In this document: positions 6,100 through 50,833 of the stretch, piece by piece
How the letters are laid out: each line of letters starts with the position of its first letter
Numbering within the stretch: the first letter of the stretch is position 1
Source: a virus
IMG/VR virus record: IMGVR_UViG_3300045738_001212
Location: 93,998 to 157,997 of that record
Length of the DNA stretch: 64,000 nucleotides
Direction: 5' to 3' (one strand)
Notes under the pieces: model-generated
Told to the model about the DNA's origin: nothing
The model's database searches: none
Seen by the model: only the letters and a program-made list of their open reading frames with translations
Position numbers and translations under genes: made by a program

Positions 6100-6173
6100 T
6101 GGAGCGAGCGAAGGGGATCGAACCCTCATCAAGAGCTTGGAAGGCTCCCGCACTACCGTTGTGCTACACTCGC
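6100..6173 (-). tRNA. tRNA-Gly (anticodon UCC)
   Basis: Minus strand. GCGAGTGTAGCACAACGGTA, anticodon arm GGAGC-CTTCCAA-GCTCT, T-loop GGTTCGATCC, encoded CCA. Its first 21 nt are also the last six codons plus stop of the HldD-like gene. Confidence 0.92.
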
Positions 6174-28939: not shown

Positions 28940-29573
28940 GCACCTACTTAGATTCGACAAGTCTAAGACTTATGTATTCATAGATTGCGAGACGTTCAAC
29001 CTGTGTCTAAACAAGGTCTATAATCTTCCTTGGCAAATAGCGATGATCAAGGCTGTTGCTGGTAAAAAAATTGCCGAAAAGAACTTCTATATTAAATGGA
29101 AAACAGACCTGAAAATAGGAGACGAAGCCGCTAGGATTACCCGCTATAGCCAAAAAACGATGGACGAGAAGGGCATCTCTCCAGAAGAAGCTTTCCCCAC
29201 GATACGAGACTGGTTGGATAACTCTGATTGGATAATCGCTCATAACATGCTGGGGTTTGATCTTTACCTAATAAAGGACTATTACAGGCTGAATAACCTT
29301 GATTATAAGCACCTGATGCCCAAGATTCTTGACACCAACTCCCTCGCTAAGGGTGTTAAGCTTGACATCCCCTACAAGGAGGATGAGGGGTCTTTAATTG
29401 AGTACCAGTATAGGATGACCAATATGCGTAAAAAGGGCGTTAGAACGAACCTGATGGCCTTGGGGAGGGACTATGACATCGAACATGACAGCGACAAACT
29501 CCACGATGCTATAGTAGATTTGGAACTTAATCTGAAAGTCTGGAACAAGCTAAAATGGCAGATAGAAATATAA
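28932..29573 (+). CDS. DnaQ-like 3'-5' proofreading exonuclease
   Basis: 213 residues. DEDDh motifs are FIDCETF (Asp18, Glu20), IIAHNMLGFDLYLIKD (Asp110) and LHDAIVDLE (His191, Asp196). It is the epsilon-type proofreading activity, expressed from a gene lying between the two parts of the polymerase alpha polypeptide. Overlaps the PHP gene by 8 nt and the polymerase core gene by 19 nt, so the three are surely co-translated. Confidence 0.9.
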   Translation: MREHLLRFDKSKTYVFIDCETFNLCLNKVYNLPWQIAMIKAVAGKKIAEKNFYIKWKTDLKIGDEAARITRYSQKTMDEKGISPEEAFPTIRDWLDNSDWIIAHNMLGFDLYLIKDYYRLNNLDYKHLMPKILDTNSLAKGVKLDIPYKEDEGSLIEYQYRMTNMRKKGVRTNLMALGRDYDIEHDSDKLHDAIVDLELNLKVWNKLKWQIEI

Positions 29574-35100: not shown

Positions 35101-38100
35101 TGGTCACCGCATCCAGTTATAGAATAATATGTCTCAGTGGTGAAATCATTTATGTTTCTTCCTGACGCTAGATCAACATCTATGGTTATAACTTGGTCAG
35201 CAGCCGGATCAGGACCGAAGCTACTCAATACGGCTTCTTCTGTAACGTAATCAACATTGACTAAGCCAGACCAATTATAGTCTTCGTTAACACTCTTAAA
35301 CTCCGGCAAAGTCGAGCCTTCTTTGGTGAGCTTTTTGGTCCAAGATACATTTCCGTATGTGTCAACAAACCCTCCAGAAACGAAATCTTTCATTGCCCAC
35401 TCTTCAACTTCCACGTTAAATGATACATGCCAGAGGAACCCACTGATTTCTTTGTCCTCCTCTTCTTCTGGATAGGTTGTCGCGTGAGCCCCAGAAGCGT
35501 TTGGATATAAAAAAGTATAATGAGTGCTTGCGTATGGTCCCCTCCAATATCTTGGGGGGTTTTCTGTTCTTTGTTTCCCCTCTAACTCAAGCCACCCCCG
35601 TTCCTCTGGCCATATTCCAGTGTCCCACGCTATGTCCCTGTGATAATGGTAATCGCAGTCATAAACCTCACAATATGCCCACCAGCTTGAGCATTGCTCC
35701 CAATTACATGCTCCGGGAGATGAGCTATTATAGCCCCCATACTGTGTTGCTTCCGATCCATCTGGACAGGGTAACGGGATAGCGTTTTCGCCACACTCTT
35801 CCATCTCAGGAGGTATTGGCGTGGTAGTGGTGGGTTCATTTGCGGGATCGTATGAGGTCGTCGTTCCGTAAGGGTCAGCCGAGGTAGTAGTCCCTTGGTA
35901 ATTCGGATTGTCGGGATTTAGGGGGTCGCAATCGTCAGGGTTAGAAACATTAGCGCAAGGATCGAGAGTCGTAGTCGTGCAAAGTTTGTCGTATGGTGGC
36001 CCCCCATCCCAGTTTCCGGGAGGTGGGCCGTGGAACGGTGGGGTAAATCCGACATCACAACACTTACTTATGTGTGGATAGTCGGCAAGGAAACCCGCCG
36101 TATTTGTCATGCAGTCTAGTCCTACGTAAGGAAAATCTTCATGGACATCTCCTTCTCCGCTTCCTATCCAGTAATACGTGACCTGACTATCTAGATAATG
36201 CTTACACTCGTTATTCCATTGGTGACCAGTGTGTACGTGCATACAAGAAACCGACTCTCCCGCCGCGTCTCCCGTTATCTGCATCCACCCCGATACAAAG
36301 GTGTGCCAATAGTCGCCTCCCCACTCACCTATGATCGTATTCTGCCACAGTCCTTCCGCTCCCGTTACTTCTGTGTATCCGCTAAGGAACAGTATTGCGC
36401 TTTCGTTATTGGCGATCTCAGGGTTGGTAATGTTTTTATAGTCAACGGTGTGGAACTGATAAGGAAACGTTGCGTTGTCCCGGAACTCTTTGGTAACTGG
36501 TATGTCCTGACAGTTGTCTCCCATTCCGAAGAATTTCTGTGGAGTGATTATCTCTTGGCCCATAGAAAACGGATCAGGAGGCAGGGGGTCTGGTGGGGAA
36601 AAATGTTGAGAGTAGCTTCCCATGTACGACTGATATGTCTGTGGAAATACGGAAGCACCTTGACAGCCAGTGAATCTATACGGATAATTTCTTTGGTTTT
36701 CTTCGTTAAAGTTATTGCTTATTTTCTTTCCTTCGAATTTTACGGTTGGACATTTTTCCCAAAAGGCTGTCTCGGGATCACAAAACGATGTTTGATATTC
36801 CACGTCTATGAGAGGGAGATTCCAACCACCTGTCCTATGAAAATAAAAAGACCCGTAGGGGTCTTGTGCCCATCTATACATCCACCCCGGAAAGAGGTTG
36901 ATGGATGCCTTTTGCATTTTTGTTTTATTCTCTATGTATACTTGGGCGTACACAAATGGGCCACCAGCAAAATCGCTATACGACAACCTGTCAGTATGCG
37001 ATATGTATCTGCTATAGAAAGGTTGAGGAGGTCCACATGTGCCAGCGACAACCCCCGCCGTAGCTGGCCCATAATGGAAAGCTCTTCTTCCTAGATTCTT
37101 GAGGTCACCTATCGGATTAGTGTAATGCTGAAGGTATGATCCACTTAGCCTTTCCTCAGTGAACCCTAGTGGACACAGAACAAATCCTGTCCATTTAATT
37201 ATGTTGCTGTTTTGCCAATAAGTTTGCGAGGTGCCCATATCCTTATTGATATGGTGGTGCCTGAAACTCATGCTTTCGACTGCATTATAATCGTCGTAGA
37301 TGCCCATCCCGACCATATCGTTACTTCCCGGAAAAGGAGACGGCCCCGGCGAGAGAGGGTTTTCGCAACTCTCTCTCCACACTCCAGCTTCGGCCCAATC
37401 GTGGTCAGATGAAAATTCTTCAGTTGTCCAATACTCTTCAGCGTCTGCCCATGTAGAGCCAGCAGCTTCACAAGTTTCTTTGGTTGTATATTGGCCCTCC
37501 CAACAATAATGAGCAGCTTCACAAGCCTCTTTGGTTACGTGTTGGGAGTCCGAGCAGTAACCAGCAGCTTCACAGCCAGCCTTATTGTTATCAAACGCAG
37601 AGTCCGTGCAAGTACCTACATCCTCGCAAGTTTCTCTGGTCGTGTATTGGGTATCTGAACACCGAGCAGTCTCACATTCAGTCTTGGTGGCCGTATACTC
37701 CCCTTGACATCCGTTTAAAGTAAAGCAACTCTTCGGTACAGTCCATTCACCCCCGATAGCGTCGCATTCTCCTGTGGTGTTGTAGTCAGGCCAAAGATAA
37801 CCTATTTTCCACGATCCACCATTGTTTACGCAATCCTCTTTGTTATTGTCTACGGAACCGAGACAAAAACCATCCTCGTGATGGCACAATGTCCTAACAA
37901 GCTCAGGGCATCCTCCGTACCAACGAGACCCGTGGACCTCGTGCGCGTGTACAAATGCATATGGTTCGTAAACTGAAGAGTCCGAAACGTCATGATACCA
38001 CGAAGGATAAGAATAATAATCAGTAAGCCATCTTCCGTCTATGCCCGTGTAGGTTTTTAGGGATTCATACGTATCTCCGAGGTAGTCAGCAGAGGCTGGA

Positions 38101-39158
38101 TAATTCCATATTGTTTTATCTGTAATATATTTTGTAGCTCCTTCGTCGTAAGTACCAGACACGGGAGGAGACTCTACAAACTTCCTTTCAAATGAAGTCC
38201 CGGTTATGGGAGCAATGGTGTAGGCTTCATCAAGGCACGGGAATTTAATTGGTCCTATGTTATCATACCCCGTTACTACTCCTTGTGGATTTGTTTTTGA
38301 AATTATCTTGTCTTCGCACGGGGGGGTGTACCACCACCAAGTTGGGTCGTATAATATTTCTCCCTTAATTGAGTAGGTAGCAAGCTCGGCGTCTTTCATG
38401 AGTTGGGGGTCGATAGGCTCCCCAAAAATTTTTGTTACGTCTTCGTAGCCGAACATGACAGCCGGAGTCGGTATTGTGGCCTCAGAAGTAATTGAAATCT
38501 CTTGAAACATTGGCGTCCAGTTGGTCGTCAATATCCTCTTAAAAACATCAGAAGATATATGCACTGGCGACATCGGAGACGCTGCTGCCCCATATTCCGT
38601 GTAATACGTATGAAGAAAAGCGGAAATTTTAGCGTAGACATGAAGGTGAATCATGTTGTTGTTCACCCCCTGTGAAGCCATCGACCCCAAACACGAAACG
38701 ATAGCTACTGAAAAATCTTCCCGAGCCTGAGTGGTTCCCCCCGACATTCTGGAAAGAACAAATTCCCTATGCGCCCCGAAGACCGAACCTTCATTAAACC
38801 CCTTGGATTGAGTTAACGCATTCCATTGCTCGTCTTTTTTTGTTACTTTCTCAAGATTTCTCAAGGGAGAGTTTGGCGACATATCTTCTACGATACTGAA
38901 ATAAGCAGCCTGAAGAACCCGAGTTATCCGGTCAAGAATCTCATGCTTACTCTTGTGACCAGCGTATGTGGATGCGTAATAGCAGACAATTAACGAGCTC
39001 GCTTTGCCCAAGGCTTGGCTCATTGCTTCTAGGTCAGGATTTCCAACTCCTTTTGCTCTATCTCCATATCCTTGTCTCCTCAAGGTAGCATATTCGTTAC
39101 TTTGCTCACTTTTACTGAGCCAAGAACTCATTTTCAGGGTTGGATCATAGCTTCCCAT
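32124..39158 (-). CDS. Giant virion-type protein (2,344 aa) with Cys-rich repeats
   Basis: No family recognised. The N-terminal 260 residues are helical and soluble (SSWLSKSEQSNEYATLR). The rest is Tyr/Gly/Trp/Asp-rich beta sequence, like fibres or baseplate arms. Residues about 420-585 hold five or more copies of a 17-residue Cys repeat (CEAAGYCSDSQHVTKEA type). More copies lie near 1,600-1,655. Thr-rich linkers (TTTTTLDPC..., about 1,063-1,120; PPTTTTSTTPEF, about 1,893-1,910) separate globular segments. A TATAAT lies 8 nt before the ATG and no Shine-Dalgarno is present. Probably a distal tail or surface protein. Confidence 0.7.
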   Translation of the reverse strand: MGSYDPTLKMSSWLSKSEQSNEYATLRRQGYGDRAKGVGNPDLEAMSQALGKASSLIVCYYASTYAGHKSKHEILDRITRVLQAAYFSIVEDMSPNSPLRNLEKVTKKDEQWNALTQSKGFNEGSVFGAHREFVLSRMSGGTTQAREDFSVAIVSCLGSMASQGVNNNMIHLHVYAKISAFLHTYYTEYGAAASPMSPVHISSDVFKRILTTNWTPMFQEISITSEATIPTPAVMFGYEDVTKIFGEPIDPQLMKDAELATYSIKGEILYDPTWWWYTPPCEDKIISKTNPQGVVTGYDNIGPIKFPCLDEAYTIAPITGTSFERKFVESPPVSGTYDEGATKYITDKTIWNYPASADYLGDTYESLKTYTGIDGRWLTDYYSYPSWYHDVSDSSVYEPYAFVHAHEVHGSRWYGGCPELVRTLCHHEDGFCLGSVDNNKEDCVNNGGSWKIGYLWPDYNTTGECDAIGGEWTVPKSCFTLNGCQGEYTATKTECETARCSDTQYTTRETCEDVGTCTDSAFDNNKAGCEAAGYCSDSQHVTKEACEAAHYCWEGQYTTKETCEAAGSTWADAEEYWTTEEFSSDHDWAEAGVWRESCENPLSPGPSPFPGSNDMVGMGIYDDYNAVESMSFRHHHINKDMGTSQTYWQNSNIIKWTGFVLCPLGFTEERLSGSYLQHYTNPIGDLKNLGRRAFHYGPATAGVVAGTCGPPQPFYSRYISHTDRLSYSDFAGGPFVYAQVYIENKTKMQKASINLFPGWMYRWAQDPYGSFYFHRTGGWNLPLIDVEYQTSFCDPETAFWEKCPTVKFEGKKISNNFNEENQRNYPYRFTGCQGASVFPQTYQSYMGSYSQHFSPPDPLPPDPFSMGQEIITPQKFFGMGDNCQDIPVTKEFRDNATFPYQFHTVDYKNITNPEIANNESAILFLSGYTEVTGAEGLWQNTIIGEWGGDYWHTFVSGWMQITGDAAGESVSCMHVHTGHQWNNECKHYLDSQVTYYWIGSGEGDVHEDFPYVGLDCMTNTAGFLADYPHISKCCDVGFTPPFHGPPPGNWDGGPPYDKLCTTTTLDPCANVSNPDDCDPLNPDNPNYQGTTTSADPYGTTTSYDPANEPTTTTPIPPEMEECGENAIPLPCPDGSEATQYGGYNSSSPGACNWEQCSSWWAYCEVYDCDYHYHRDIAWDTGIWPEERGWLELEGKQRTENPPRYWRGPYASTHYTFLYPNASGAHATTYPEEEEDKEISGFLWHVSFNVEVEEWAMKDFVSGGFVDTYGNVSWTKKLTKEGSTLPEFKSVNEDYNWSGLVNVDYVTEEAVLSSFGPDPAADQVITIDVDLASGRNINDFTTETYYSITGCGDQDANPMHDYVTRYTCEDANYIWQPSYIETKPTQVVIDGGNKFARAQYYKYQTEESHYDNDLEDDYYEVKASVTYGGYRRYSKYDFPVKTRYAKPSYRLENLLQDFEEFNTAFSYGNQAYFLCSYDQGGGGTFSQNMDRVDYGPESMSFDPVHWWPMSSSSHVTGTYHENYEKCADAYVMDGQQPAIQSEACKVIEGPLVHPEKIYGDHWVGLRSGCLYGANGYAGNFDSLIDLEGLPATGNDAGYFCDENRELYEIWVCSDEQYLTKEDCDYHDKVWEARMGRCSSPYYTEAGDCTWHGHYWTGSQEYCERDGHEWIHPYSKSPIDDSPGLCCPNDESATINCEGEAGHYGMDDYLRCPMDFSTSPYFDEYPTLREAESRVYLFNIRPTEVDIHIRAPDYVSEDTEGRVYDPTGVGTIGEMSMYDGGGGSLAGMGWAKQVVLCYLTGTDQIARVGMEELPEGVEAVYGNPNNKPIELFKESWIDEKTLSFEGAFPIADGIVFEKPTQPWAYKSHAGGTRWETLLEHGARIAVGGAVGTTVDPTPPTTTTSTTPEFIPGSCAGCLKSVGFEDESLNGYWRLAYDYLNYSQTEWDMVDSENGVSMFGRTDVPGGNTHWLIGNKDDIPNHYDYSKASCWALAVDNATLQWPCPGDGSNHLPNGVSWTCGVHGSAETGQPNASFQGVEISLCAPTPTTPDPTDASLLIPVSGWKETSRIKILITDIKIDGLGRMPVDSYFAMEQSGACQVSGYLQYQHQQEASIYTEGIVMEDVSEDPDLNDLDYPHYASEVIKRDGVTFPTGDAYEAQFGLFNPDFAPVTKDILFAPSRMQVRANELVTMGSGMHNYHDLYRGAPYYYNRYLWPTISDLHHFNGHLLSWESLPTSDSQTYPVSALLCSAAAGQPTANDDTSIFTQRHYVVTQHWMFYDGVVTDPTINREWMRRGEVGHNFFPGGGYVVPKGTTVNDIEQGIVSAEKTILRPPDEAGGSVPIGSST
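37461..37695 (-). repeat. 51-bp coding tandem repeat of Cys-rich motif
   Basis: AGCAGCTTCACAAG-like units begin at 37461, 37512 and 37563 (51-nt period) with diverged copies near 37621 and 37665. They encode the C-x2-(A/G)...YCSDxQ-x-TKEx repeats of the 2,344-residue protein. Confidence 0.75.
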
Positions 39159-39166
39159 AGGTGTAT

Positions 39167-39172
39167 ATTATA
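39167..39172 (-). promoter_or_regulatory. Candidate -10 box TATAAT
   Basis: Minus-strand TATAAT ends 8 nt before the ATG of the 2,344-residue gene. There is no TTGACA-like -35 and no Shine-Dalgarno, and an 8-T run is just upstream. It may mark the start of a very short-leader transcript. Confidence 0.4.
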
Positions 39173-39207
39173 TAAAAAAAAGCCTGTTTAGTCTCCTTAA
39201 TCAGACC

Positions 39208-42200
39208 TTAGACTATCTCAAGCTGACCATTATTGAGGAAATCATGGAACATTGCGTCCACCCCTTGCCGCGTTCGATTTGCCGCGTATGTTGCTGCTCG
39301 GCTATATATTTCCTTTTGATGAAGGGTGGAGTTATTAGCTCCAACATTAATCACGAGTTGGTCGAGAAATTTATCGAGAGGTTCTCCCAACATGTTTGTC
39401 GCGCACCAAATTTGGTCATTTGTAAATAGTGCTTTTATCGTTTGGTATGACCCGCCGCTGCTGTTGATTCCGGGAACTTGAATCATGGTACTCATGAACC
39501 CGTCCACCATGTTTACAAGTTCACTGGTGAACGTGAGTTCTAGCAGGTCTTGATGAGTCTCTGCGAAAACACTTGCCGATTGAGCGAATGCTGATTGCAT
39601 CATTGTTAATTCTACATCCATTCCCAGATGCAGGGTAGGGGTTAGAAAATTACAGTGTTCTGCGCCCTGACCATTACACGGAGAAATGGAGGTGTCAGCA
39701 TATCTCTGTGCAGACAAGTCTGGTGTAGCTCCATATGTGCCCTTATTTTCGGACAAGTTGTAAGCGGTTGCTTCCTGTAATCCCTGCCCCAGAAAATCAG
39801 CCTCGAATACACCACCGCCTTCACTCTTAATTCCATCCCCGCCAGCTATTGTATTCTTAATACGTCTGTAAGGGGTAGCCCACGGTCCTCTCATTATTCT
39901 GCAAGATTTCCCAAGCGCATTTTTAGACAACAACTTTTCTTCATCGTCAACCTCGTTTGAGATTTGCGTTACGAATCTGCTTCCCTGCGCTTGTCCTGCC
40001 GCCGAAAAGCCACTTTGCGCGGCTGTGCGAGCGTCAATTACGGCCTGTGCTTGTTGCGCGGCTTGTGCAGTTTGAGTTAGCCCAAGTTTTTTGGTGCTTG
40101 GAGCCGGGATGTTGTGTCTGCTGTAGCTATATTTGACATGACCGTTTATGGTTAGTAGCTTTCCTCCGGGGAAAAATCCATAATTATATTTCATGCTTAA
40201 ACAGGGATCAAAGCACTTACCTTTCAACAATTGGTCCTCATTACACCCGTAAAACCAACCGGGGTCTAAGCCCACCCTAATCGCGTAGACATACCAGTCA
40301 CATATCGGGTCTCCCGGATGATAAAAAGCAGGGCGGCTCCGATGTGGTGCGTCCACGCAACTTATTCTCCACGACCCGCAGCCTCCGGCTTTTGATGAAC
40401 CGTGCGGCCCCCATCTTATGTATCTAACGCTTGTTATCCCGCCGAACGCTTGCATGGCTCTACGTCTTAACTTCCTTACTCTTTTAACCTGTGGAAGAAG
40501 ATTATTGGTTTCCTGTCTGGCCCACAAACCATATATCGCGGGAGGATCATACATGTTATCCATAGCCCTCTCAAACCTGTGTGAGTAAAAAGATTGAGGT
40601 ATGCCGTTCCCGTTCCTGTCCCTGTTGTGTCTGGAAATTTTCCATTCGTATGCATACGGCCCAATGAGGGCAGTTCTTTTAATGCGTGTGCTATTCGGGT
40701 TCCCTCCCCAGAAATATTGACAAGCTGCTGATCCAGCCCTTAATCCGGGAGCGATATAGCTTTTGTTTTTTACTTTAGCTTTACCCTTGGCGTCGCAAGA
40801 AAGCCAATATCTCATCAAGTTTTCTACGAAATACAACATGAATCTTCCGCATGAGCCCTCTCGCCACCCACACCTTTCGCCACCCAATGAATGAGGGAAA
40901 ACCATTCTTCTTGCGGCGTAAAATTCATGTCTCATCGCCGCCTGATCGGTTGACCAGAAAAGAACATCTTCATCATCTTCTATTTCGGTGCCAGTAGGGC
41001 CACCAAGCTTTAATATGGAGTAGCGGCCAAATCTTTTAATTGCCCCCAAGTTATTTGAAAACTGCCATGTGACACCTATTCCAAAATTCTGAACCAAATG
41101 ACCGGGGCCAAAACCATAGTCGTGGGTGACATCTTGCTCATTGTAAGGATATAGTTCTCCGTGATGAAATTGTAGAGACGGTTTTACCCCATAGATTGAA
41201 CTGGTGCAGATAATAGCTGGCTCCAACGGAGCCCAGTGTCGTGTCACAGGTGCCGTTGCGGGCGTTGCGCCAACTAATCCAGCAAGGTTTGTGCTGTTGG
41301 TTTGCTGGGACACCTCTCCGCACTTGTCTGTATGAGTGGTAAGACTATGGGCTGCTGCCCCATCAAATTTACCCACCTGAATGTTACCCCCGAACCCACA
41401 CCCCTTTCCCCCTCTCTGCATATTATAATTCTTGCAAATAGGAATCTGGCTTTGACCATATAGAGCGTTTCCTTCTTCCTGTTTTAACTTGGTCCCGAAT
41501 GGAACTAGGTAACCATACTCAAACCAGCTTGCTCTTTCAGCCTTGTCTCCTTTTACGGCTGCTTGCGTGGGTGGCATAAACGATCTGGTTGTTCCCCTAA
41601 ACCCTTCTACACCGAGAAAGGAATAAGACCTACAGTTGTTGTACATGTTCATGAACTCTTTAACATGGTTTTCGGTAACTTGGTTTTTGTCTTTTTGAAT
41701 ACCCAGAAACGCAGGAATCATTCCCTTTTTAAAAAACGATGGGCTTTCTTTGTGAGCTCCCCATCCCATTTTAAGAATTACCGACCCTGCTACCCCCTCA
41801 ACTGTTTCGTACTCAAAATTGACTGAGTTCATAGGTATCTGCGCTGGAGCACCATTTCTTATAGAGAAATCTATCTTTACCCAGTCTTCCACCTGCAAGT
41901 TGACATGCTCGCTCCGTCGGAAACCAAACCTTCCAGAAGCGACACAAAGATAAAGATAATCTTCATCTCCGTTAAAACCCGGTGCCGCCGGGTGGACAAT
42001 AGGAACTTTTTCCCATTCGTCTGGGCCGACACCGAACGTCGGACATGCGCTGTGTCCGTCTCGCATTATCGCCCCTTGGACATAACTAAACTCCCTGTAA
42101 AGCCTTTTGTCGTAGTCGCTGTCCACATGTATTTGAGATGTGCCTTTTATTTTTCCGTTGTAGTCGCACAGCTTAGACCAGTGTTCTTCACCGACTTTTC

Positions 42201-45200
42201 TGCTGCCCGGATTATATTCGTATTGAGACATGTCCCACGTATAGGTCAATTGAGGGTGAATCAAGGTGCAATCCTCGGCTCCTCTTCCGCTTATCCCTTC
42301 GAGGCAACACCACGTACCAGTCACGGAAGCTTCTTGAATAAGCTCAAAATCTTTCAGGCCAGCACTCTTTACTTGGTTGAAGTTGGGAGACTTGGGGTCC
42401 GTCTCGAAAATATTACCATAGAAAAGACTATCCAATTCCGCTTCAGCAGAAGCCTTATTTAAATATGTCTTATTTATTCGGTACCATTTGTACTCAACAG
42501 GGTATTTCGGATTCCCCTCTTTGTTCGTAAGCTTGAGGTTGTTGGTCCAAAAATCAATTTCTGGATAACCCTTATTTATCTTGTCCTCTGGGATGGTATG
42601 ATAGTCAACAGCCTGACACCTGAACTTGGGCCTTTGTCCAACCTTACACGCCACATCTATCGGTTGCTGCGTAAAGATGGGTGAGAAGCAGGAGAAGTTC
42701 GGGTCCAGTTCCCCGACATCGTTATGACCGACTACCCTCCAAGGGGCAATCGGGATTTTAGAGGACCAGCTTTCCCCAGCAGCTTCACAGTCCGCCTTGC
42801 TGGCGTGACCTCCCGCGCTACAGGTTCCTTTTGTGTCCGTTGATACTCCGTAAGAAGTATTTTGTCTTCTTGGTATGTCGCCGCCGCACCCAAACTCCTG
42901 AAAGAAACCTGCGGAAAAGAAAGGAGACTGCGATATAGCATCTTTGATCTTATGTTGTACTCCCGTGATGGTAGACTTGTGGGCGTATACACCTTGGAAA
43001 TATGTCCTTGGTACGTCTGGTAAAGGGTCGAATCGAGCATTAGCTGGATTTTTTGAGCCTCGATAGTTATCTGTTACGTTGTTGCCATATATGGAATTTC
43101 CCCAATGTTCGTTCAAGCGATACCCTGACGCTGTGTCCGTGGAGAATCCGATGTGGTTTGTCGGGTACAGGTCGATGGCTTTGCCCCTTAATTTATTTTC
43201 GACAAACCTTGTCAATAACCTTGCTTCCTTTCCTGTAATTCCCGATTCGTAAAAGGCTCCTCTTGCCACTGACTTGGAATTGGACGGAGCACCAGCGTGG
43301 CTGGCATTATCAGCGACGTAGTGGCCGTATAAATTTACAAGGTCATTCCAAGCGTCGTTATGTTTCTCGCTATTGCCTAAAAGATTGTTCCCCAAGTCCC
43401 ACGAAATTTCTTTTATAAATCTTTTGTACCTATCGTTAGTGAACAGCAAGTCGTTAAGGGCACTTTTTCTTGAGTAAGATAATGCGTCAGTGCCGAACAT
43501 ATCCCCTCCCCCCGTGTCGTAAAAAATGACAGGTGAATTTGCTCCCCTCATAAAGTTGGGAAGATTTATAAGGGTTTCGTCAAAGTCCTGCTTTAGTCTT
43601 AGAAAGCTTTGTTTAAAATGAATTTCTCCGTCTGCTCCGGGAGTACTTCCCGTTAATAATTTTCGGTACTCGTATGAATTTACTATGTGATCGTAATTAG
43701 CCCAAAGGAAAAAGCCCCTATTACCAGCAAAAAATTCTCCCAAACGTTCTTCATGCTTCGCAAGCTCTAAAAGAGTTTCGTAGTGTGCGGTATCACATGT
43801 CCCGGCGGCAACCGCTGGCTCTTCATAGGGCGTACAGTTTTGTACGCTCGCTGAAAAATCTCTCACCAAGCCTACCTTGCTGTCACAAGTGCTGTACTTT
43901 CCTTCAGAAGCTTGTATATTGTCGAGGGTTCCTCTAGCCGATGTCCTTATCATGTTTAACGCGAGGAACGGGTCGTTAACCACGATGTCTACGTTAAAGT
44001 ATTCCGAACCATGCCTCAGAAGACTTGCGTCGGAAGTGCTGCCTATCGCTCGTAATTCTGCCAACGTTTTTCCAAACTCGGTTTCTATCGCTGTTGTTAT
44101 TTGCTCCTCTACCTTATCGAAGGCGTCCTTGCCTCCATCAATACAGGATGAGCAAGGGTCTATTGTGTAATTGATAGTTTTCCAAGTGACCGTATCTTTT
44201 TTCACCATGTGATAAAAATTCATAAGGTCGAACTCTTCTTCGAATACGTCATATTCAAGGTCTATATTTCCTTGTTCTTGGGCAAAAGCTGGGCCAGTAG
44301 AAGACAACTGGAGGTCTGCTGGTTCATCATCCGTTGAAGTCTTTACGAATGTCACGTTGTAACACTTATAATTGACCATCAAGGTAGAGCTCGGAGAACT
44401 AGAGCCGCCAGCTAAAGACTTCATGGTGACAGTCCCACCACCACCACCGCACTCTGTAGCCGTGTAGTAACTGTACTCGTCGTTAAATTGAGCGCACGTT
44501 TCATTATCTTTTTGTGATACCGGGCGGCTACAGGAATTAAAAAACCTTGCCCCGTAAAATCCAAACTTGCCTATCGCAGCGTAGTATGGAATATCAAAAT
44601 AATCCGAGGGACAGGCGGTAATTGGATTATCTTGGCTCCAAGGCAGGAAATCTGGAGTGTTGGGGCATTGCCTATATTCCCACATATGCTTATCGAAAGC
44701 TCCCTCACCATGAACGAGTGACGTTACCTTCTTCGACGTGGTGTTTTCTGTGTCGTTCCACAGTTGGTCGTGATTGTACCTATAAATAAAATGCCAATAG
44801 ACAAACGGATCATAAGTAGCGAAGCTTGCCTGATCGTTCACTGCTGACGCAAAGCCGTGACCCGCCCCCAATTGAACTCCCGCAAAATGGTAACCGAGAA
44901 GCTGGGATGTTTCACATTGCCTAGCTTTACATATACCTCCGTCTAGTTTTGATTCGTTAGTCCCCGCGACGGGGTAGGCCATTTCTGGGAATCCGCCTTT
45001 TATTTTATATCCAAGATATTTTGGTGCCCCTTCATAGCAAAGTTGAGCTTCGTAAACGTGAGTATTAAGCCAACCATCTGCGTCTACGGAATTTGGGAAA
45101 GGATTATCGTTGTAAAATGATCCCGCTCCCGGAGCCATGATTGAACCGGGGTGATAAGCGAACCTTTGTTCCTGAAAATAATAAGCCGGAATAAAGTCTG

Positions 45201-46155
45201 GCGGACACTCTTCAGATGGAGCATGAATCCCATGTTCGTCCCCCCTCTGTTGGTCGAAAGTCACCATAAAAGTGCCTCTAGTGGGGAAAATCGTTCTTAT
45301 CCCCCACATAAATAGCTCTTCTGGGTCGTCTAACTTTTTACAGCAATCTCCAGCCATAAAGTTGCCGAGAGCGAAGTCCTCGGCGTTCATTATTTGCCCC
45401 TCTCCAAGACCTCCTAAGTCTCCCCCGTCGGGGTCAGGGCCATAAAGACTAAGGGTCGGGACTTCTCCGTAGGGGGGAGCAAAGTATCCAGCGGGATATG
45501 TGGCGTTGTAGAAATTGTGCTCGCCACCATGCCCCTGTTCAGCAAGCCTTGTAGTCCCATGACACGTTTCATAAATATCAAACTTATAACTGGTTGCCAT
45601 GTGGAATTGATTAACGCCAGCTACGAATTTCTCTTGTTTTTTCGCGGAGCTATGCTTACCGACTTCATACCAGTCCTGTATCTTGTGTTTTTCTGTATTC
45701 AGAAGGTGAAATGCGTCAGGGTCTAGTTCCCCCGCGTTTCCTTCGAATTCGAAAGAGTCAATAGGCACTTCTTCCCAGAGACTATCGCTTTCGGTGGGAG
45801 CGGTAGCAGAACCGTGATCAGTCATGCAATAATAGAACTTAGGTTCTCCCCCTCCGGGGTCAGGCACGGAAACGAAATCTCCTTTTGCGTAGTTTGTAGC
45901 TCCAGCCCAGCCTTTCTGATTGTCGTAGCCGAAAGGAATTCCACCCGTAAATGACTTCCTGTGGACACCTGTCCAGTAATAGTCTGTGACTTTTTCGTCA
46001 GGCTCGAAGGAAATCATTTTGGGATCAACCCACTCTTTCTCGGCATACCATGTTTTTCCATCGGTCTCACAAGCCGCCTTCGTAGCGTGACCCCCTTCAC
46101 TACAGTGGCCCTCATCGACTTGTCTCGTGTATCTGTAAAAACCGGGTATTCTCAT
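39208..46155 (-). CDS. Giant virion-type protein (2,315 aa)
   Basis: No overall family recognised. The N-terminus bears a Cys repeat (CSEGGHATKAACETDG, about 18-33) and another lies near 1,107-1,125. A segment around 1,155-1,235 (PIFTQQPIDVACKVGQRPKF ... VEYKWYRI) has the Cys...Trp pattern of an immunoglobulin-like domain. An Ala/Gln-rich coiled segment (TAQAAQQAQAVIDARTAAQS) lies late, followed by a helical C-terminus. Composition is rich in Tyr, Trp, Gly and His with many short loops. It precedes the other giant gene by 49 bp in the same orientation. Likely a tail-fibre, baseplate or capsid-decoration protein. Confidence 0.7.
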   Translation of the reverse strand: MRIPGFYRYTRQVDEGHCSEGGHATKAACETDGKTWYAEKEWVDPKMISFEPDEKVTDYYWTGVHRKSFTGGIPFGYDNQKGWAGATNYAKGDFVSVPDPGGGEPKFYYCMTDHGSATAPTESDSLWEEVPIDSFEFEGNAGELDPDAFHLLNTEKHKIQDWYEVGKHSSAKKQEKFVAGVNQFHMATSYKFDIYETCHGTTRLAEQGHGGEHNFYNATYPAGYFAPPYGEVPTLSLYGPDPDGGDLGGLGEGQIMNAEDFALGNFMAGDCCKKLDDPEELFMWGIRTIFPTRGTFMVTFDQQRGDEHGIHAPSEECPPDFIPAYYFQEQRFAYHPGSIMAPGAGSFYNDNPFPNSVDADGWLNTHVYEAQLCYEGAPKYLGYKIKGGFPEMAYPVAGTNESKLDGGICKARQCETSQLLGYHFAGVQLGAGHGFASAVNDQASFATYDPFVYWHFIYRYNHDQLWNDTENTTSKKVTSLVHGEGAFDKHMWEYRQCPNTPDFLPWSQDNPITACPSDYFDIPYYAAIGKFGFYGARFFNSCSRPVSQKDNETCAQFNDEYSYYTATECGGGGGTVTMKSLAGGSSSPSSTLMVNYKCYNVTFVKTSTDDEPADLQLSSTGPAFAQEQGNIDLEYDVFEEEFDLMNFYHMVKKDTVTWKTINYTIDPCSSCIDGGKDAFDKVEEQITTAIETEFGKTLAELRAIGSTSDASLLRHGSEYFNVDIVVNDPFLALNMIRTSARGTLDNIQASEGKYSTCDSKVGLVRDFSASVQNCTPYEEPAVAAGTCDTAHYETLLELAKHEERLGEFFAGNRGFFLWANYDHIVNSYEYRKLLTGSTPGADGEIHFKQSFLRLKQDFDETLINLPNFMRGANSPVIFYDTGGGDMFGTDALSYSRKSALNDLLFTNDRYKRFIKEISWDLGNNLLGNSEKHNDAWNDLVNLYGHYVADNASHAGAPSNSKSVARGAFYESGITGKEARLLTRFVENKLRGKAIDLYPTNHIGFSTDTASGYRLNEHWGNSIYGNNVTDNYRGSKNPANARFDPLPDVPRTYFQGVYAHKSTITGVQHKIKDAISQSPFFSAGFFQEFGCGGDIPRRQNTSYGVSTDTKGTCSAGGHASKADCEAAGESWSSKIPIAPWRVVGHNDVGELDPNFSCFSPIFTQQPIDVACKVGQRPKFRCQAVDYHTIPEDKINKGYPEIDFWTNNLKLTNKEGNPKYPVEYKWYRINKTYLNKASAEAELDSLFYGNIFETDPKSPNFNQVKSAGLKDFELIQEASVTGTWCCLEGISGRGAEDCTLIHPQLTYTWDMSQYEYNPGSRKVGEEHWSKLCDYNGKIKGTSQIHVDSDYDKRLYREFSYVQGAIMRDGHSACPTFGVGPDEWEKVPIVHPAAPGFNGDEDYLYLCVASGRFGFRRSEHVNLQVEDWVKIDFSIRNGAPAQIPMNSVNFEYETVEGVAGSVILKMGWGAHKESPSFFKKGMIPAFLGIQKDKNQVTENHVKEFMNMYNNCRSYSFLGVEGFRGTTRSFMPPTQAAVKGDKAERASWFEYGYLVPFGTKLKQEEGNALYGQSQIPICKNYNMQRGGKGCGFGGNIQVGKFDGAAAHSLTTHTDKCGEVSQQTNSTNLAGLVGATPATAPVTRHWAPLEPAIICTSSIYGVKPSLQFHHGELYPYNEQDVTHDYGFGPGHLVQNFGIGVTWQFSNNLGAIKRFGRYSILKLGGPTGTEIEDDEDVLFWSTDQAAMRHEFYAARRMVFPHSLGGERCGWREGSCGRFMLYFVENLMRYWLSCDAKGKAKVKNKSYIAPGLRAGSAACQYFWGGNPNSTRIKRTALIGPYAYEWKISRHNRDRNGNGIPQSFYSHRFERAMDNMYDPPAIYGLWARQETNNLLPQVKRVRKLRRRAMQAFGGITSVRYIRWGPHGSSKAGGCGSWRISCVDAPHRSRPAFYHPGDPICDWYVYAIRVGLDPGWFYGCNEDQLLKGKCFDPCLSMKYNYGFFPGGKLLTINGHVKYSYSRHNIPAPSTKKLGLTQTAQAAQQAQAVIDARTAAQSGFSAAGQAQGSRFVTQISNEVDDEEKLLSKNALGKSCRIMRGPWATPYRRIKNTIAGGDGIKSEGGGVFEADFLGQGLQEATAYNLSENKGTYGATPDLSAQRYADTSISPCNGQGAEHCNFLTPTLHLGMDVELTMMQSAFAQSASVFAETHQDLLELTFTSELVNMVDGFMSTMIQVPGINSSGGSYQTIKALFTNDQIWCATNMLGEPLDKFLDQLVINVGANNSTLHQKEIYSRAATYAANRTRQGVDAMFHDFLNNGQLEIV

Positions 46156-46164
46156 CCTTTATCC

Positions 46165-46193
46165 TTGACTTTCTCCTCTATTATGCCTATAAT
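46165..46193 (+). promoter_or_regulatory. Sigma-70 promoter TTGACT-N17-TATAAT
   Basis: TTGACT (46165-46170), 17-nt spacer, TATAAT (46188-46193). The ATG at 46204 is 10 nt past the -10. It lies in the divergent gap and overlaps the minus-strand GTGTAATTATA motif. Confidence 0.75.
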
Positions 46194-46199
46194 TACACG
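46188..46199 (-). promoter_or_regulatory. GTGTAATTATA motif before the giant-protein operon
   Basis: Minus strand CGTGTAATTATA, 32 nt before the ATG of the 2,315-residue gene, which has an AAGGATAAAGG ribosome-binding region. Second of three near-identical intergenic copies (7109, 46188, 60736). Confidence 0.45.
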
Positions 46200-46203
46200 T
46201 ATT

Positions 46204-46782
46204 ATGATACAATTCTACAAGCCAAATGGCAAAAATACCGGGGCCGCCTGTTCTTTTTGGTATAGCCCTGATAAAGACGCCTTTTTTAGCAACATTATTA
46301 AACAGGCATCTTGGAACGCCAAGTCTAGGACGGGCTCCTTTTTGGAGAACAAAAAAAATAGAGAAAAAAACGTCCTGATTAAGCTAAACTTAAATGAAAT
46401 TGGTGGGATACTGGACTGCTTGGAAAACAACAGGGAATTCTCTGCATACCACTCTTCTCCACAGGCTAACCACATTACCAAGATGAAGTTTGCTAAGTAC
46501 GTCAAAGAAGATGAGCAGCTAGGTTTTATTTTTATGGCATCGAAAGAACCGAAAGACGACCCTTCTTCCAAGTTGAATTTCAGTATCGCTTTGAATTTTG
46601 GGGAGGCTAAAGCTCTCCAACAGTGTCTTTTGTTCATGATGAACTCGATGTTCACGGATAAAATCGACAAGATTAAAAGTAAAGCAGCCAGCCGACAAAA
46701 AACCTTGCCCAGTCAAGCTCCCGCTAAAAAAGCGACCTACACGCAGGGAGACAGTGAAAAAAGTGACGAGATAGTCTTTTAG
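46204..46782 (+). CDS. Possible ssDNA-binding protein, 192 aa
   Basis: Start at 46204, fixed by the promoter 10 nt upstream; a longer frame would run through the divergent giant gene. The pattern FYKPNGKNTGAACSFWYS ... IIKQASWNAKSRTGSF ... KNVLIKLNLNEIGGIL ... YHSSPQANHITKMKF resembles a compact beta-sheet phage family with Whirly/PC4-like organisation, followed by a basic Ser/Lys tail. The family identity is tentative. ssDNA binding would suit its orientation with replication genes. Confidence 0.5.
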   Translation: MIQFYKPNGKNTGAACSFWYSPDKDAFFSNIIKQASWNAKSRTGSFLENKKNREKNVLIKLNLNEIGGILDCLENNREFSAYHSSPQANHITKMKFAKYVKEDEQLGFIFMASKEPKDDPSSKLNFSIALNFGEAKALQQCLLFMMNSMFTDKIDKIKSKAASRQKTLPSQAPAKKATYTQGDSEKSDEIVF

Positions 46783-46787
46783 AAGAA

Positions 46788-48713
46788 ATGAAAAAAAAGA
46801 AAGTAGTATTCCAAACTGATTTTAGCTTGGCTAAAACGGGGTTTGGGCGCAATGCAAGAATTCTTCTAGAGTATCTTCATGCGACAGGGAAATATGACCT
46901 AGTTCACTACGTCGTCGGGCTAAATTACTCCAACCCCGAACTAGAAAGGACGCCTTGGAAATCCGTAGGTTGTCTCCCGGATAGTCAGCAAGAGCTTCAA
47001 GAGCTACAAAGAGACCCAAATGTAGCTAGGCAAGCTGGCTACGGCGCACACTATCTCGACAGGGTTATCAAAGAGGAACGACCAGATATATACATAGCTA
47101 CTCAAGATATCTGGGGGGTTGACTTTGCTTTAGAAAAAAAATGGTTTAAAAAAATAACAAGCGTCATCTGGACAACCCTCGACTCTCTCCCCCTGTTGCC
47201 CGTGGCGATAGATAAGGCTAACAAAATTGATAACTATTGGATATGGAGCAACTTCGCTGTCAAAGCCCTCCATAAATTAGACCACAAACACGTTAAGCAA
47301 GTCTCAGGGGTTATAAACGAAAAAGATTTCTACAAACTGGAAGACGAAAAAAGAAAATCGTTAAGAAAGAAGTTCCAAATCCCCGAAGACACTTTTGTTA
47401 TAGGGTTCGTATTCAGAAACCAACTAAGAAAATCTGTCCCGAATCTCCTAGAGGGGTACAAAATATTCAAAGAGCAAAACCCTGATACCAAGACGCTTTT
47501 GTTGCTACATACGCACTTCTCAGAAGGTTGGGAAATCGAACGGCTGATTAAAGAGTATGACCTGCCGAAGGAAGAAATAATCACCACGTATATTTGTCGA
47601 AACTGCCTCAACTACGAGATCAAACCCTTCACTAAACAGGACATAGACTGCAATCTCTGTCGTACCCAAAAGTCTCAAGTAACCACACAGCCTCAGATAG
47701 GGGTTGAAGAGAAGCAGTTAAACGAGGTGTACAATTTAATGGATGTTTATTGCCATCCATTTACTTCTGGAGGTCAGGAGATTCCAATCCAAGAGGCTAA
47801 ACTAGTAGAGCTTATTACCCTTGTTACAAATTATAGTTGTGGCGAAGATATGTGTGTGCCCGAAGCGGCTTCCATTGCGTTGGATTGGGCAGAATACAGG
47901 GAGCACGGAACACAATTCATCAAAGCCTCTACTTATCCAAAGTCCATAGCTGAAGGGCTTACGAAGGTTCTCAACATGGACCCAGAAGAGAGAGAGCTCC
48001 TTGGGGCGAAAGCTAAAGAGTGGACTATCAAAAATTATTCCATCAACTCTATGGGATCGTTTTTCGAGGAGTTCATAGATTCTGCCCCCTTTACTAAATA
48101 TGACTTTGAAGAAAAAGAAGAAGAGAAAAACCCCTTTTACGAAATCCCAAACATTGAAAAAGACGACGAGTGGTTGATTAATATATATGAGAACATCCTC
48201 AGAATGAAAGATGTGGACAAGGGCGATGATGGCCACCAGTATTGGATGAAAGAGCTTGAGAAGGGGGCTAATCGACGAGACATAGAAAATTATTTTCGGC
48301 AAATTGCTCTTAAAGAAAATCAAAAAAATCAAAAAATACCCTTTGAGGATTTGCTAGATGAAGACGACGAAGGCAAGAGAGTCCTCTACGTTATACCCCA
48401 AAGTATAGGTGACATTTTTCTATCAACAAGCCTGTTCAAATCAATTAAAGAGCAATACCCAGACTATAATCTATACGTAGCCATCGATCCTCAATTCAGA
48501 GATATTTTAGAAGGCGGACCCTATATTCATAAGATAATTAATTACATTCCACAAATGGACAACCTTTTGTGGCTAGAGGGCACTGGGGATCATAAAGGAT
48601 TTTTTGAAATAGCATTTCTCCCTCACTTGGGAACCCAAAGGATGCTTAGTTACTTACACAACGGTAAAGATAAAATAGCTTACAAAGACCTATGTTATGA
48701 AAGGGAACGATGA
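46788..48713 (+). CDS. Composite protein: GT4 glycosyltransferase + DUF4214-like + N-terminal GT9 half
   Basis: 641 residues in three parts. Residues 1-420 form a GT4-type GT-B fold (QTDFSLAKTGFGRNARILLE at 9-28; HPFTSGGQEIPIQEAKLVEL near 323-342, with a CRNCLNYE...CNLCRT zinc-like insert at about 269-290). Residues 462-515 (LINIYENILRMKDVDKGDDG ... ALKEN) resemble DUF4214 linkers found between phage sugar-transferase domains. Residues 530-641 start a heptosyltransferase fold (VLYVIPQSIGDIFLSTSLFK). The last domain stops before its C-terminal half, which appears in the next-but-one gene. Adds sugar(s) to an unknown acceptor. Confidence 0.8.
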   Translation: MKKKKVVFQTDFSLAKTGFGRNARILLEYLHATGKYDLVHYVVGLNYSNPELERTPWKSVGCLPDSQQELQELQRDPNVARQAGYGAHYLDRVIKEERPDIYIATQDIWGVDFALEKKWFKKITSVIWTTLDSLPLLPVAIDKANKIDNYWIWSNFAVKALHKLDHKHVKQVSGVINEKDFYKLEDEKRKSLRKKFQIPEDTFVIGFVFRNQLRKSVPNLLEGYKIFKEQNPDTKTLLLLHTHFSEGWEIERLIKEYDLPKEEIITTYICRNCLNYEIKPFTKQDIDCNLCRTQKSQVTTQPQIGVEEKQLNEVYNLMDVYCHPFTSGGQEIPIQEAKLVELITLVTNYSCGEDMCVPEAASIALDWAEYREHGTQFIKASTYPKSIAEGLTKVLNMDPEERELLGAKAKEWTIKNYSINSMGSFFEEFIDSAPFTKYDFEEKEEEKNPFYEIPNIEKDDEWLINIYENILRMKDVDKGDDGHQYWMKELEKGANRRDIENYFRQIALKENQKNQKIPFEDLLDEDDEGKRVLYVIPQSIGDIFLSTSLFKSIKEQYPDYNLYVAIDPQFRDILEGGPYIHKIINYIPQMDNLLWLEGTGDHKGFFEIAFLPHLGTQRMLSYLHNGKDKIAYKDLCYERER

Positions 48714-48906
48714 ATTTACTAAAAACTTCAAAAGCCCCATACCTCCCCACCTTTCTCCCGAAGAAAGAGAGGAGTGGGAAGAAGAATTCCGCCGGGACAA
48801 AGAAGAGTTAGAGAAGAGGAAGAAGAAAGGTCTCTACAAACAACAACCAAGGAAAAGAAGAGGCAAATTAACAGAAAGAATTGCCAATCTTTTTAGATCG
48901 ACATAA
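48697..48906 (+). CDS. 69-residue charged ORF interrupting a GT9 domain
   Basis: Highly charged (PEEREEWEEEFRRDKEELEKR ... RKRRGKLTERIANLFRST), predicted helical, no Cys. It starts 17 nt before the end of the composite glycosyltransferase gene and stops at 48906, where TAATG joins it to the next gene. The flanking proteins look like the two halves of one GT9 domain, so this ORF sits at the break. It might be an inserted element, a linker that once joined the halves, or a small partner subunit. No nuclease or intein motif is present. Confidence 0.6.
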   Translation: MKGNDEFTKNFKSPIPPHLSPEEREEWEEEFRRDKEELEKRKKKGLYKQQPRKRRGKLTERIANLFRST

Positions 48907-50069
48907 TGCACCTAGTAGAAACATACGCCTTAGCTTGCGGGGCCAAGATAGATAAGCCTTACATCTATGAAAAATACTTTCCGCTTCCAAACGCCAAGTA
49001 CATATCCTTCCAGCCCTTTGCTGGTGCGCCCATCAAGAACTATGATTACTGGCAAGAGGTAATTAACATATTGTCCCCTTCCCTTTCGAAAGAGAAAATT
49101 TCTATTTTACAGATCGGAGCGAAAGATGAAAAAATTTTCAAGGGATGTCTAAGCGTCGTGGGGCATACAAACGTTAATCAAGCAGCCTATGTGATAAGCA
49201 GGGGTGAACTTCACTTGGGGGCGGACAGCTTTGGTGTGCACATAGCCTCCTCTCAGGAGAAAAGAATTGTTTCTTTATATTCTAATAATCTCATCAAGAA
49301 CGTCGGGCCTTATTGGTCTGAAAGCAAAGATGTCGCTCTCCTAGAACCCAAGAGGGAAGGCAAACCAAACTATTCCACCGAAGAAAAACCGAAGTCAATA
49401 AACTCAATCAAGCCCGAAGACATAGCTCAATCTGTATGTAGACTACTAAATATAAAATTTAAAAAACCATATCAAACAATCTTTACCGGAGAAAGGTTCG
49501 GTGAAGATGAGTTCCTTGTCTTTGTTCCTGACACGATACACATGATTAGAAAGCCGCCCCAACCAATAGAGATAAGAATGGACTACCACTTCGATGAGAG
49601 CATGTTGGAAAAACAGCTAGGGATATGTCCATGTGGTATAATTACGAAGAGACCCATTAACCTTGAGATGCTTAAGCGATACAAGCCTCATGTCGGTCAC
49701 TTGTTTTATGAAATTACAGAAAATGACAAGCCAGAATTTGCCCAAGCAGTCAGGAAGTTAGGCATAAAAATCATGCCGATCTCAAGGCTTCCAAAGGAAG
49801 AGCTTTCGAGAAAGAAGATCGACTACCTAGACGTGGGCAAAATCAACGTTGTCGAAGAGCCTGATGAAAAATTAATTAAAAAAATAAAAAAAGAATCAAA
49901 TCTTTTTTATAAATCGAACAAGATAATTATGTCTCGTGAGAAAACATTCTCCAGTTACCCAAAATACAAAAAAGATCAACCAAGTAACGGAAATTTCGAG
50001 CCTGTTGAAACGTCTGATATGTTTTTCGACGACTTAGATCACTATCACATCGTGAAAAAGCTTGACTAG
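48906..50069 (+). CDS. C-terminal GT9-like half fused to unknown domain
   Basis: 387 residues. Residues 1-140 (HLVETYALACGAKIDKPYIY ... SILQIGAKDEKIFKGCLSVV ... LHLGADSFGVHIASSQEKRI) match the acceptor helix, donor strand and DSG/H loop of a GT9 enzyme's second half. The expected preceding half is at the end of the 46788-48713 protein. Residues 200-387 form another domain with cysteines in GICPCGI and a basic C-terminus, not recognised. The stop TAG overlaps the TTGACT of the next promoter. Confidence 0.7.
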   Translation: MHLVETYALACGAKIDKPYIYEKYFPLPNAKYISFQPFAGAPIKNYDYWQEVINILSPSLSKEKISILQIGAKDEKIFKGCLSVVGHTNVNQAAYVISRGELHLGADSFGVHIASSQEKRIVSLYSNNLIKNVGPYWSESKDVALLEPKREGKPNYSTEEKPKSINSIKPEDIAQSVCRLLNIKFKKPYQTIFTGERFGEDEFLVFVPDTIHMIRKPPQPIEIRMDYHFDESMLEKQLGICPCGIITKRPINLEMLKRYKPHVGHLFYEITENDKPEFAQAVRKLGIKIMPISRLPKEELSRKKIDYLDVGKINVVEEPDEKLIKKIKKESNLFYKSNKIIMSREKTFSSYPKYKKDQPSNGNFEPVETSDMFFDDLDHYHIVKKLD

Positions 50070-50095: not shown

Positions 50096-50833
50096 ATGGC
50101 TACGAAAAAACAAAGCGGCCCGGTGGGGTCGCGAGGGAAAACTCAATTCAAGAGGGATAACAACGGGCTAATCAGTGGGGTTGATTACGTCTTTAATGAA
50201 GATGGAGCAATCGACTGGAGAGCGATGGTCAAAACTCAATATCTTGTCCCAGATAGAAATAAAACCCAAGAAACCGACGTAACCAAACTTCCTGATAATC
50301 AACTTATTATTCTTCTCGGCGGGATTAAAGAGCTTGCTCAGATCAGGGGCTATAGCTCTGTAAAATATGACGTAAAAAGCCCTAGTTCAGATTATGTTGT
50401 GGCCGCTTGCTCGATAGATTGGACTCCAAATTATGAGACAGAGAACCAAGCTGTCACATTTTCAGCAATAGGAGATGCTTCTCCCGCTAATACGACAAGC
50501 TTCGCTCGCAATTACCTCGGTCCTATCGCGGAAAATCGAGCATTCGTAAGATGTGTCAGAAGTTTTTTGAAAATAAACATTGTTTCCCAAGAAGAACTTG
50601 GAGAGCAAAATCCTTCGAAACAACAGCCCAAGACAGCAGAAGATCAAGTGGTTCCAAGCCCTCATAACGTTTTAAAAAACACAATGGAGAGCAAGGGCGT
50701 TGACTTCAAGACCATAAAGAAACGACTTGGCGATGAAGGATACGAGAAGGCAGAAGAAATCTTCTCAATTGAAGACATTCCAAAGATAAAGGTCTTTGAA
50801 CTCATAGAGAGAATCAAAAAGATTCCCGCCTAG
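50096..50833 (+). CDS. Putative recombination mediator / ssDNA-annealing-like protein
   Basis: 245 residues. The central motif AVTFSAIGDASPANTTSFAR followed by GPIAENRAFVRCVRSFLKIN recalls the Rad52/Sak-type annealing protein core (GxGDA...AEtRAkaRAlr). The C-terminus ends with a helical segment (SKGVDFKTIKKRLGDEG). The N-terminus is basic (ATKKQSGPVGSRGKTQF). The match is by pattern only. Own leaderless promoter and early-type orientation fit a DNA-metabolism role. It converges with the structural operon end, 3 nt away. Confidence 0.5.
   Translation: MATKKQSGPVGSRGKTQFKRDNNGLISGVDYVFNEDGAIDWRAMVKTQYLVPDRNKTQETDVTKLPDNQLIILLGGIKELAQIRGYSSVKYDVKSPSSDYVVAACSIDWTPNYETENQAVTFSAIGDASPANTTSFARNYLGPIAENRAFVRCVRSFLKINIVSQEELGEQNPSKQQPKTAEDQVVPSPHNVLKNTMESKGVDFKTIKKRLGDEGYEKAEEIFSIEDIPKIKVFELIERIKKIPA

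What the first reader, a model, noticed from the sequence alone, without database searches (positions are those of the whole stretch)
46788..50069. A GT9 domain split across two genes by a 69-residue ORF
The end of the 641-residue protein reads as the first half of a heptosyltransferase fold (VLYVIPQSIGDIFLS... stopping at KDLCYERER), and the start of the 387-residue protein reads as the second half (HLVETYALACGAKID...LHLGADSFGVHIA). Between them a charged 69-codon ORF overlaps the first gene by 17 nt and the next by TAATG. This looks like insertion or fission of a single enzyme with coupling kept, perhaps a new mobile or linker element or a three-piece enzyme.
Basis: partly seen in the sequence, partly recalled or inferred. 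Interest (0 to 1): 0.65.

Follow-up and report, generated by a model that had tools for sequence, protein, structure and literature searches.

The report
Phage enzyme split across two genes
Hundreds of uncultured phages appear to make one sugar-attaching enzyme as two separate proteins, with one essential catalytic residue on each; the small gene between them here is an unrelated later arrival, not a third part of the enzyme.

Summary
Gene A (641 aa) ends in the N-terminal half of a GT9 (heptosyltransferase-type GT-B) domain. Gene B (387 aa) starts with the C-terminal half. A 69-codon gene C lies between them, overlapping A by 17 nt and B by 1 nt.

The split is real but old and universal in the family: 194 A-B loci plus 80 more divergent ones contain no fused copy. 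B lies in all three frames relative to A, which excludes a conserved frameshift, and the closest relative has no insert.

C is a normal separate gene inserted later. It entered the same junction independently in two lineages and sits between unrelated genes in other phages. Other phages carry different genes in this junction (Anp1-like transferase, DUF6165, sugar dehydratase).

A and B most likely assemble into one active site. The WaaC Asp13 equivalent is on A and the Asp261 equivalent on B. The GD loop of A and the D[ST]xxxH motif of B are kept or lost together in 129 of 130 rows. A joined chain folds confidently (pTM 0.91) and matches heptosyltransferases across both halves.

It works like the split GT-B pairs Alg14/Alg13 and EpsE/EpsF. 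I found no description of a split GT9. Donor and acceptor are unknown.

The parts
46788..48713 (+). Gene A, 641 aa: complete GT4 glycosyltransferase (about residues 1-430), weak DUF4214-like helical segment (459-499), then the N-terminal half of a GT9 domain
   Evidence: Pfam PF00534 E 9e-8, phrog_2170 E 8e-13; fold matches GT4 enzymes over about 450 columns; relatives
48363..48713 (+). GT9 N-terminal half at the end of A (residues 526-641), with the IGD loop; the D542 codon is 48411-48413 (equivalent of WaaC D13)
   Evidence: Profile match to 1psw 2-56; joined-chain model; D invariant in 133 of 133 loci
48697..48906 (+). Gene C, 69 aa, charged small protein with motif SPIPxHLTPEERExWE; inserted in the A|B junction
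   Evidence: 12 family loci; synonymous-rich codon change in the motif; only one copy in this genome; no repeats in 48600-49000
48906..50069 (+). Gene B, 387 aa: C-terminal half of the GT9 domain (about residues 1-190) and an unidentified C-terminal domain
   Evidence: PF01075 E 1.6e-9, profile positions 104-229; relatives; model
49224..49241 (+). Donor-side motif DSFGVH in B; D107 codon 49224-49226 (equivalent of WaaC D261)
   Evidence: Alignment; joint conservation with the GD loop of A
45961..46782 (+). Fixed upstream neighbour (start probably 46204, MIQFYKP...), function not identified
   Evidence: Relative next to A in 129 of 133 loci; no family found
50096..50833 (+). Fixed downstream neighbour, 245 aa, function not identified
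   Evidence: Relative next to B in 129 of 133 loci; no family found

Best explanation
A and B are two subunits of one split GT9-type glycosyltransferase. A carries a complete GT4 transferase and, at its end, the GT9 N-terminal Rossmann half with the catalytic Asp. B carries the GT9 C-terminal, donor-binding half with D[ST]xxxH plus an extra domain. The two proteins, made from adjacent or overlapping genes, pair so that the GT9 active site forms in the cleft between them; because A also has its own GT4 site, the assembly may make two sugar transfers. The split falls in the interdomain linker and predates the family. The 69-codon gene C is a separate small gene that later entered the junction and is not part of the enzyme. 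Shown: gene structure, universal split, insertion history, joint motif loss, fold match of the joined chain. Inferred: physical pairing, catalysis, two-step action. Unknown: donor, acceptor, role of C.
For: Both halves match one heptosyltransferase chain in order. The joined chain from L002 folds with pTM 0.91 and pLDDT 92.8, with only the stretch around the split poorly placed, and its top 30 PDB matches are all GT9 or heptosyltransferases (1psw, WaaC, TibC, 3tov) over about 350 columns. No fusion in 194 + 80 loci, with the halves adjacent in all of them. The WaaC D13 equivalent (A D542) is invariant in 133 of 133 and the D261 equivalent is on the other protein (residue roles from PMC5713226). 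GD in A and D[ST]xxxH in B agree in 129 of 130 rows; 11 and 12 changes on a tree built from the GT4 part only; all six independent pairs on supported branches go together. Separate insertions of C in window and L045 lineages, and other genes in the same junction. Precedents: Alg14/13 and EpsE/F (PMC8993221); separately made GT-B halves self-assemble into active dimers (PMC10937113).
Against: No experiment. The N half of GT9 is weak by sequence alone. The model joins the halves by reading through a stop, which brings them together artificially, and its TM-scores to WaaF are modest (0.58 by target, rmsd 7.4), so the angle between the halves is uncertain. Linkage of A and B could also come from simple co-inheritance. 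The motif D[ST]xxxH was defined after seeing the alignment; with D..H alone the agreement is 125 of 133, and the sign test on supported branches is only p 0.03. About a quarter of the family has lost the donor motif and may be inactive.
Confidence: 0.75

Rival explanations
1. A and B are independent proteins: the GT9-like tail of A and the GT9-like start of B no longer form one site, and B or the GT4 part of A works alone.
For: They are separate genes in different frames and the junction tolerates other genes. Part of the family has lost the donor motif.
Against: The catalytic Asp and the donor motif are on different proteins and are kept or lost together; the halves are adjacent in every locus; each half alone lacks the other side of a GT-B cleft.
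Confidence: 0.14
2. The pair works as proposed but as a DNA-glycosylating enzyme of the replication module, rather than on cell-surface glycans, lipids or virion proteins. This is a rival about the acceptor only.
For: A-B lie between the same two genes in 129 of 133 loci and near DNA polymerase III alpha in 102. Known DNA glucosyltransferases of T4-like phages also have the GT-B fold (own knowledge).
Against: No Tet/JBP match in 50 related records (the search had no positive control), thymidylate-synthase type genes in only 5 of 50 and none in this one. The two fixed neighbours are unidentified. The fold matches are to lipid and protein heptosyltransferases.
Confidence: 0.12
3. The 69-codon product is a third subunit or linker that holds the two halves together.
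For: It sits exactly in the junction with overlaps on both sides, and independently does so in L045.
Against: Absent from this junction in all but two of 133 distinct loci, including the closest relative; found between unrelated genes in other phages, in one of which A-B lie elsewhere without it (L048 and L150 are one contig).
Confidence: 0.04
4. Ribosomes bypass or frameshift across the junction to make one fused GT9 polypeptide.
For: The halves are adjacent and often overlap by a few nucleotides (gap -17 to +15 in 118 of 133).
Against: B lies in all three frames relative to A (59/61/13), no fused copy exists, B has an ATG start in 130 of 133, and inserts of 190-1020 nt coding for whole genes are tolerated.
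Confidence: 0.02

Closest known systems
GT9 heptosyltransferases (WaaF 1psw, WaaC, TibC; Pfam PF01075)
   Same: Both Rossmann halves, the GD loop with catalytic Asp and the D[ST]xxxH donor motif are present; best fold and profile matches.
   Different: Known members are single chains; here the halves are on two proteins, the first fused to a GT4 enzyme and the second to an unidentified domain. Heptose as donor is not shown.
Alg14/Alg13 and bacterial EpsE/EpsF split GT-B enzymes (PMC8993221)
   Same: A GT-B enzyme divided between its two Rossmann domains into two proteins, the acceptor-side half and the donor-side half.
   Different: Those belong to the MurG-like lineage; this pair matches GT9. 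Re-fusions are known there, none was seen here; no membrane segment is involved in the Alg14 way (not tested here).
Engineered self-assembling GT-B halves (PMC10937113)
   Same: Separately made N- and C-domains, cut in the linker, form active dimers.
   Different: Artificial plant GT1 enzymes.
Phage GT4-family glycosyltransferases (phrog_2170; S-CBS4, S-EIV1)
   Same: The N-terminal part of A matches them.
   Different: Those are single-domain genes of about 380-420 aa without a GT9 tail.

Membership tests
GT9 (PF01075) | C-terminal donor-binding half with D[ST]xxxH motif | tested here: met
   B: E 1.6e-9 over profile 104-229; DSFGVH. Some relatives have lost the motif.
GT9 (PF01075) | N-terminal half with GD loop and catalytic Asp | tested here: met
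   A residues 526-641: collinear profile match to 1psw 2-56 (weak alone), joined-chain fold match, Asp invariant in 133 of 133
GT9 (PF01075) | Both halves on one polypeptide, as in all solved members | tested here: not met
   0 fused in 194 + 80 loci
GT9 (PF01075) | Transferase activity with ADP-heptose or another nucleotide sugar | not testable with these tools
   Needs an enzyme assay; HldE-type genes strong in only 4 of 50 related records
Alg14/Alg13 or EpsE/EpsF | GT-B enzyme split between the two Rossmann domains into adjacent or separate genes | tested here: met
   Split lies in the linker of the joined model; works like, not member of
Alg14/Alg13 or EpsE/EpsF | Sequence relation to MurG / GT28-type enzymes | tested here: not met
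   Top 30 fold matches and both profile matches are GT9 or heptosyltransferases
Alg14/Alg13 or EpsE/EpsF | Physical heterodimer | not testable with these tools
   Only indirect support from joint motif loss
GT4 (for the N-terminal part of A) | GT4 domain match and fold | tested here: met
   PF00534 over cut-off; GT4 structures top the fold search
Mobile element or intron-like insertion (for gene C) | Endonuclease or transposase domain, terminal repeats or target duplications | tested here: not met
   No Pfam or PHROGs family, no direct or inverted repeats in 48600-49000

The most novel reading that the evidence does not exclude
An obligate two-protein enzyme, universal in a large uncultured phage group, in which a GT4 transferase and a split GT9 active site form one assembly that adds two sugars in sequence and which, from its fixed place in the replication module, modifies phage DNA.
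Probability: 0.1. Interest if true: 0.8.

Novelty: new variant of a known kind. Interest (0 to 1): 0.52.

Why it matters
A split GT9 would be another natural way of dividing a GT-B enzyme between two proteins, besides Alg14/Alg13 and EpsE/EpsF. It would show that the division can be stable across a whole group of phages and that the junction can even take up other genes. The joint loss of active-site motifs in two separate genes gives a clean, testable case of two proteins sharing one catalytic site. It also points to an unknown glycosylation step fixed near the DNA polymerase in many uncultured phages. Domain searches here see A as a GT4 and B as a partial GT9, and would miss this.

Tried and rejected
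Conserved programmed frameshift: rejected, B is in all three frames relative to A. Fusion in divergent members: none in 80 further loci. Gene C as a mobile element with ends: no repeats and no known domain. Gene C as a spurious ORF: rejected, conserved family with synonymous-rich change. ADP-heptose as a general donor: strong HldE-type match in only 4 of 50 records; HldD-type hits in 34 of 50 are all below cut-off and shared with many sugar epimerases. DNA-base modification hallmarks: Tet/JBP 0 of 50 (no positive control rang), ThyA-type 5 of 50 over cut-off. Naming the two fixed neighbours by Pfam, PHROGs or PDB profiles gave nothing usable; my impression that they resemble a single-strand-binding and an annealing protein is a lead only. 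Named phages: only GT4-only cyanophage genes, no match for B, and weak GT9 hits in S-CAM3. A divergent B alignment gave no pattern for a scan. Profile comparison with the intact GT9-like genes of this phage aligned the C half only. The viral fold library lists single-chain phage GT9 proteins, two of them long (924 and 985 aa), whose sequences I could not fetch; whether they are unsplit relatives is open. Literature searches found no split GT9, but the library holds open-access papers only.

Full report
What is there. The window is bases 93998-157997 of a 157,997-base virus record. A has a GT4 domain (PF00534; fold matches to GT4 enzymes over about 450 columns). B has the second half of a GT9 domain (PF01075 positions 104-229 of 247, E 1.6e-9).

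The two halves belong to one fold. A family profile of the joined halves matches E. coli heptosyltransferase II (1psw) and a Veillonella GT9 (3tov) with both pieces in order, A-encoded part first. The joined chain was modelled from relative L002, in which A and B are in one frame, separated by one stop and four codons. Reading the TAA as a residue gives P0001. With 113 alignment rows, nearly all of them unjoined halves, AlphaFold2 gave mean pLDDT 92.8 and pTM 0.91, and only the stretch around the split is poorly placed. Its top 30 PDB matches are WaaF, WaaC, TibC and 3tov, over about 350 columns spanning both halves. TM-scores are modest (0.58 by target for 1psw), so the angle between the halves is uncertain.

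The split is old and universal. Scans found at least 594 viral stretches encoding A relatives and 340 encoding B relatives, of which the best 80 each could be read; 12 more lie in genome-bin contigs. In 194 loci (133 distinct complete pairs) no A-B fusion exists. B is in frame +1, +2 or 0 relative to A in 59, 61 and 13 cases, always with a stop between, usually from 17 nt of overlap to 15 nt of gap. A further 80 loci found with a divergent N-half alignment are all split as well. This rules out a conserved frameshift and shows that gene C did not create the split. The closest relative, L002 (79% and 67% identity), has no insert.

The junction accepts genes. In 15 of 133 distinct loci the A|B junction holds a whole gene: the C family (window and L045), an Anp1-like transferase (10 loci), a DUF6165 protein (L055, L087) or a sugar-nucleotide dehydratase (L038), each tightly packed against both neighbours. 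On a tree of the GT4 part the insert kinds need at least 10 changes; window and L045 are separate events. By comparison the expected neighbour is not directly adjacent in 7 loci at the upstream boundary of A and in 5 at the downstream boundary of B. The two halves are thus treated as two genes.

Gene C. Its family has the motif SPIPxHLTPEERExWE. In other phages it lies between RmlA-like and RmlD-like genes, beside an aldehyde dehydrogenase, beside HAD or methyltransferase genes, or near tail-type genes, often with the same kind of start-stop overlap. In one phage (the contig of L048 and L150) C and A-B are both present but far apart. Codon changes in the motif are almost all synonymous (pS 0.87, pN 0.11, in a motif chosen for conservation). 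There are no repeats around it and no known domain. It is a real small gene of unknown function, often near sugar-metabolism genes.

A shared active site. In WaaC, D13 (N half) and D261 (C half) are the residues whose loss cuts activity several thousand-fold (PMC5713226). By alignment their equivalents here are D542 of A and D107 of B. The first is invariant in 133 of 133 loci. The Gly before it (GD loop) and the D[ST]xxxH motif in B are kept together or lost together in 129 of 130 rows, with 11 and 12 changes on a tree built without either region; the six independent pairs on well-supported branches change together (p 0.03). The motif definition was made after seeing the alignment; with D..H alone the agreement is 125 of 133. 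Such joint loss in two genes is what is expected if both line one cleft. It also means that about a quarter of the family may be catalytically altered.

How it probably works. A and B pair, as do Alg14/Alg13 and EpsE/EpsF (PMC8993221) and as do engineered GT-B halves (PMC10937113). The GT9 site forms between the A tail and the start of B and sits beside the complete GT4 transferase of A, so two transfers may be made by one assembly. Pairing and catalysis are inferred. The donor is unknown: this phage has ADP-heptose-type genes (HldE- and HldD-like, all below NCBIfam cut-offs), but most relatives show no such HldE match. The acceptor is unknown: A-B are fixed between the same two unidentified genes in 129 of 133 loci and near DNA polymerase III alpha in 102, which suggests a role tied to replication such as DNA glycosylation, yet the usual base-modifying partners were not found.

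Verdict. Observation confirmed. Interpretation partly right: one enzyme in two pieces, yes; a mobile or linker element or a third piece, no. It is best described as a new, split variant of GT9, working like but not belonging to the Alg14/Alg13 kind.

Noticed in passing
window 27584-32131: DNA polymerase III alpha appears divided into three adjacent ORFs: a PHP-like N-terminal part (27584-28939), a DnaQ-like exonuclease (28932-29573) and the polymerase body (29555-32131, TIGR00594 436 bits). The first two names are by eye.
   Followed up: partly
window 32124-46155: Two very large minus-strand ORFs (2344 and 2315 aa) lie between the polymerase and the gene upstream of A, whereas in 102 of 133 relatives a polymerase gene is within two or three genes upstream of A.
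   Followed up: no
window 20147-20599, 6153-7028 (-), and record bases 85399-86208: HldE adenylyltransferase-like, HldD epimerase-like and HldE kinase-like genes: a possible phage ADP-heptose pathway, all below NCBIfam cut-offs.
   Followed up: partly
window 17888-18853, 18805-19575, and record bases 24374-25264: Further GT9-like ORFs in the same phage that look unsplit.
   Followed up: partly
L010, L015, L016, L019, L022 and relatives: One subclade has replaced the donor-side D[ST]xxxH motif of B by N/S...Q or similar while keeping the catalytic Asp of A; it may be a non-catalytic or re-purposed version.
   Followed up: partly
L042, L047, L048, L051: The 69-residue family repeatedly lies just upstream of an RmlD-like gene and close behind an RmlA-like gene, suggesting a link to sugar-nucleotide synthesis.
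   Followed up: no
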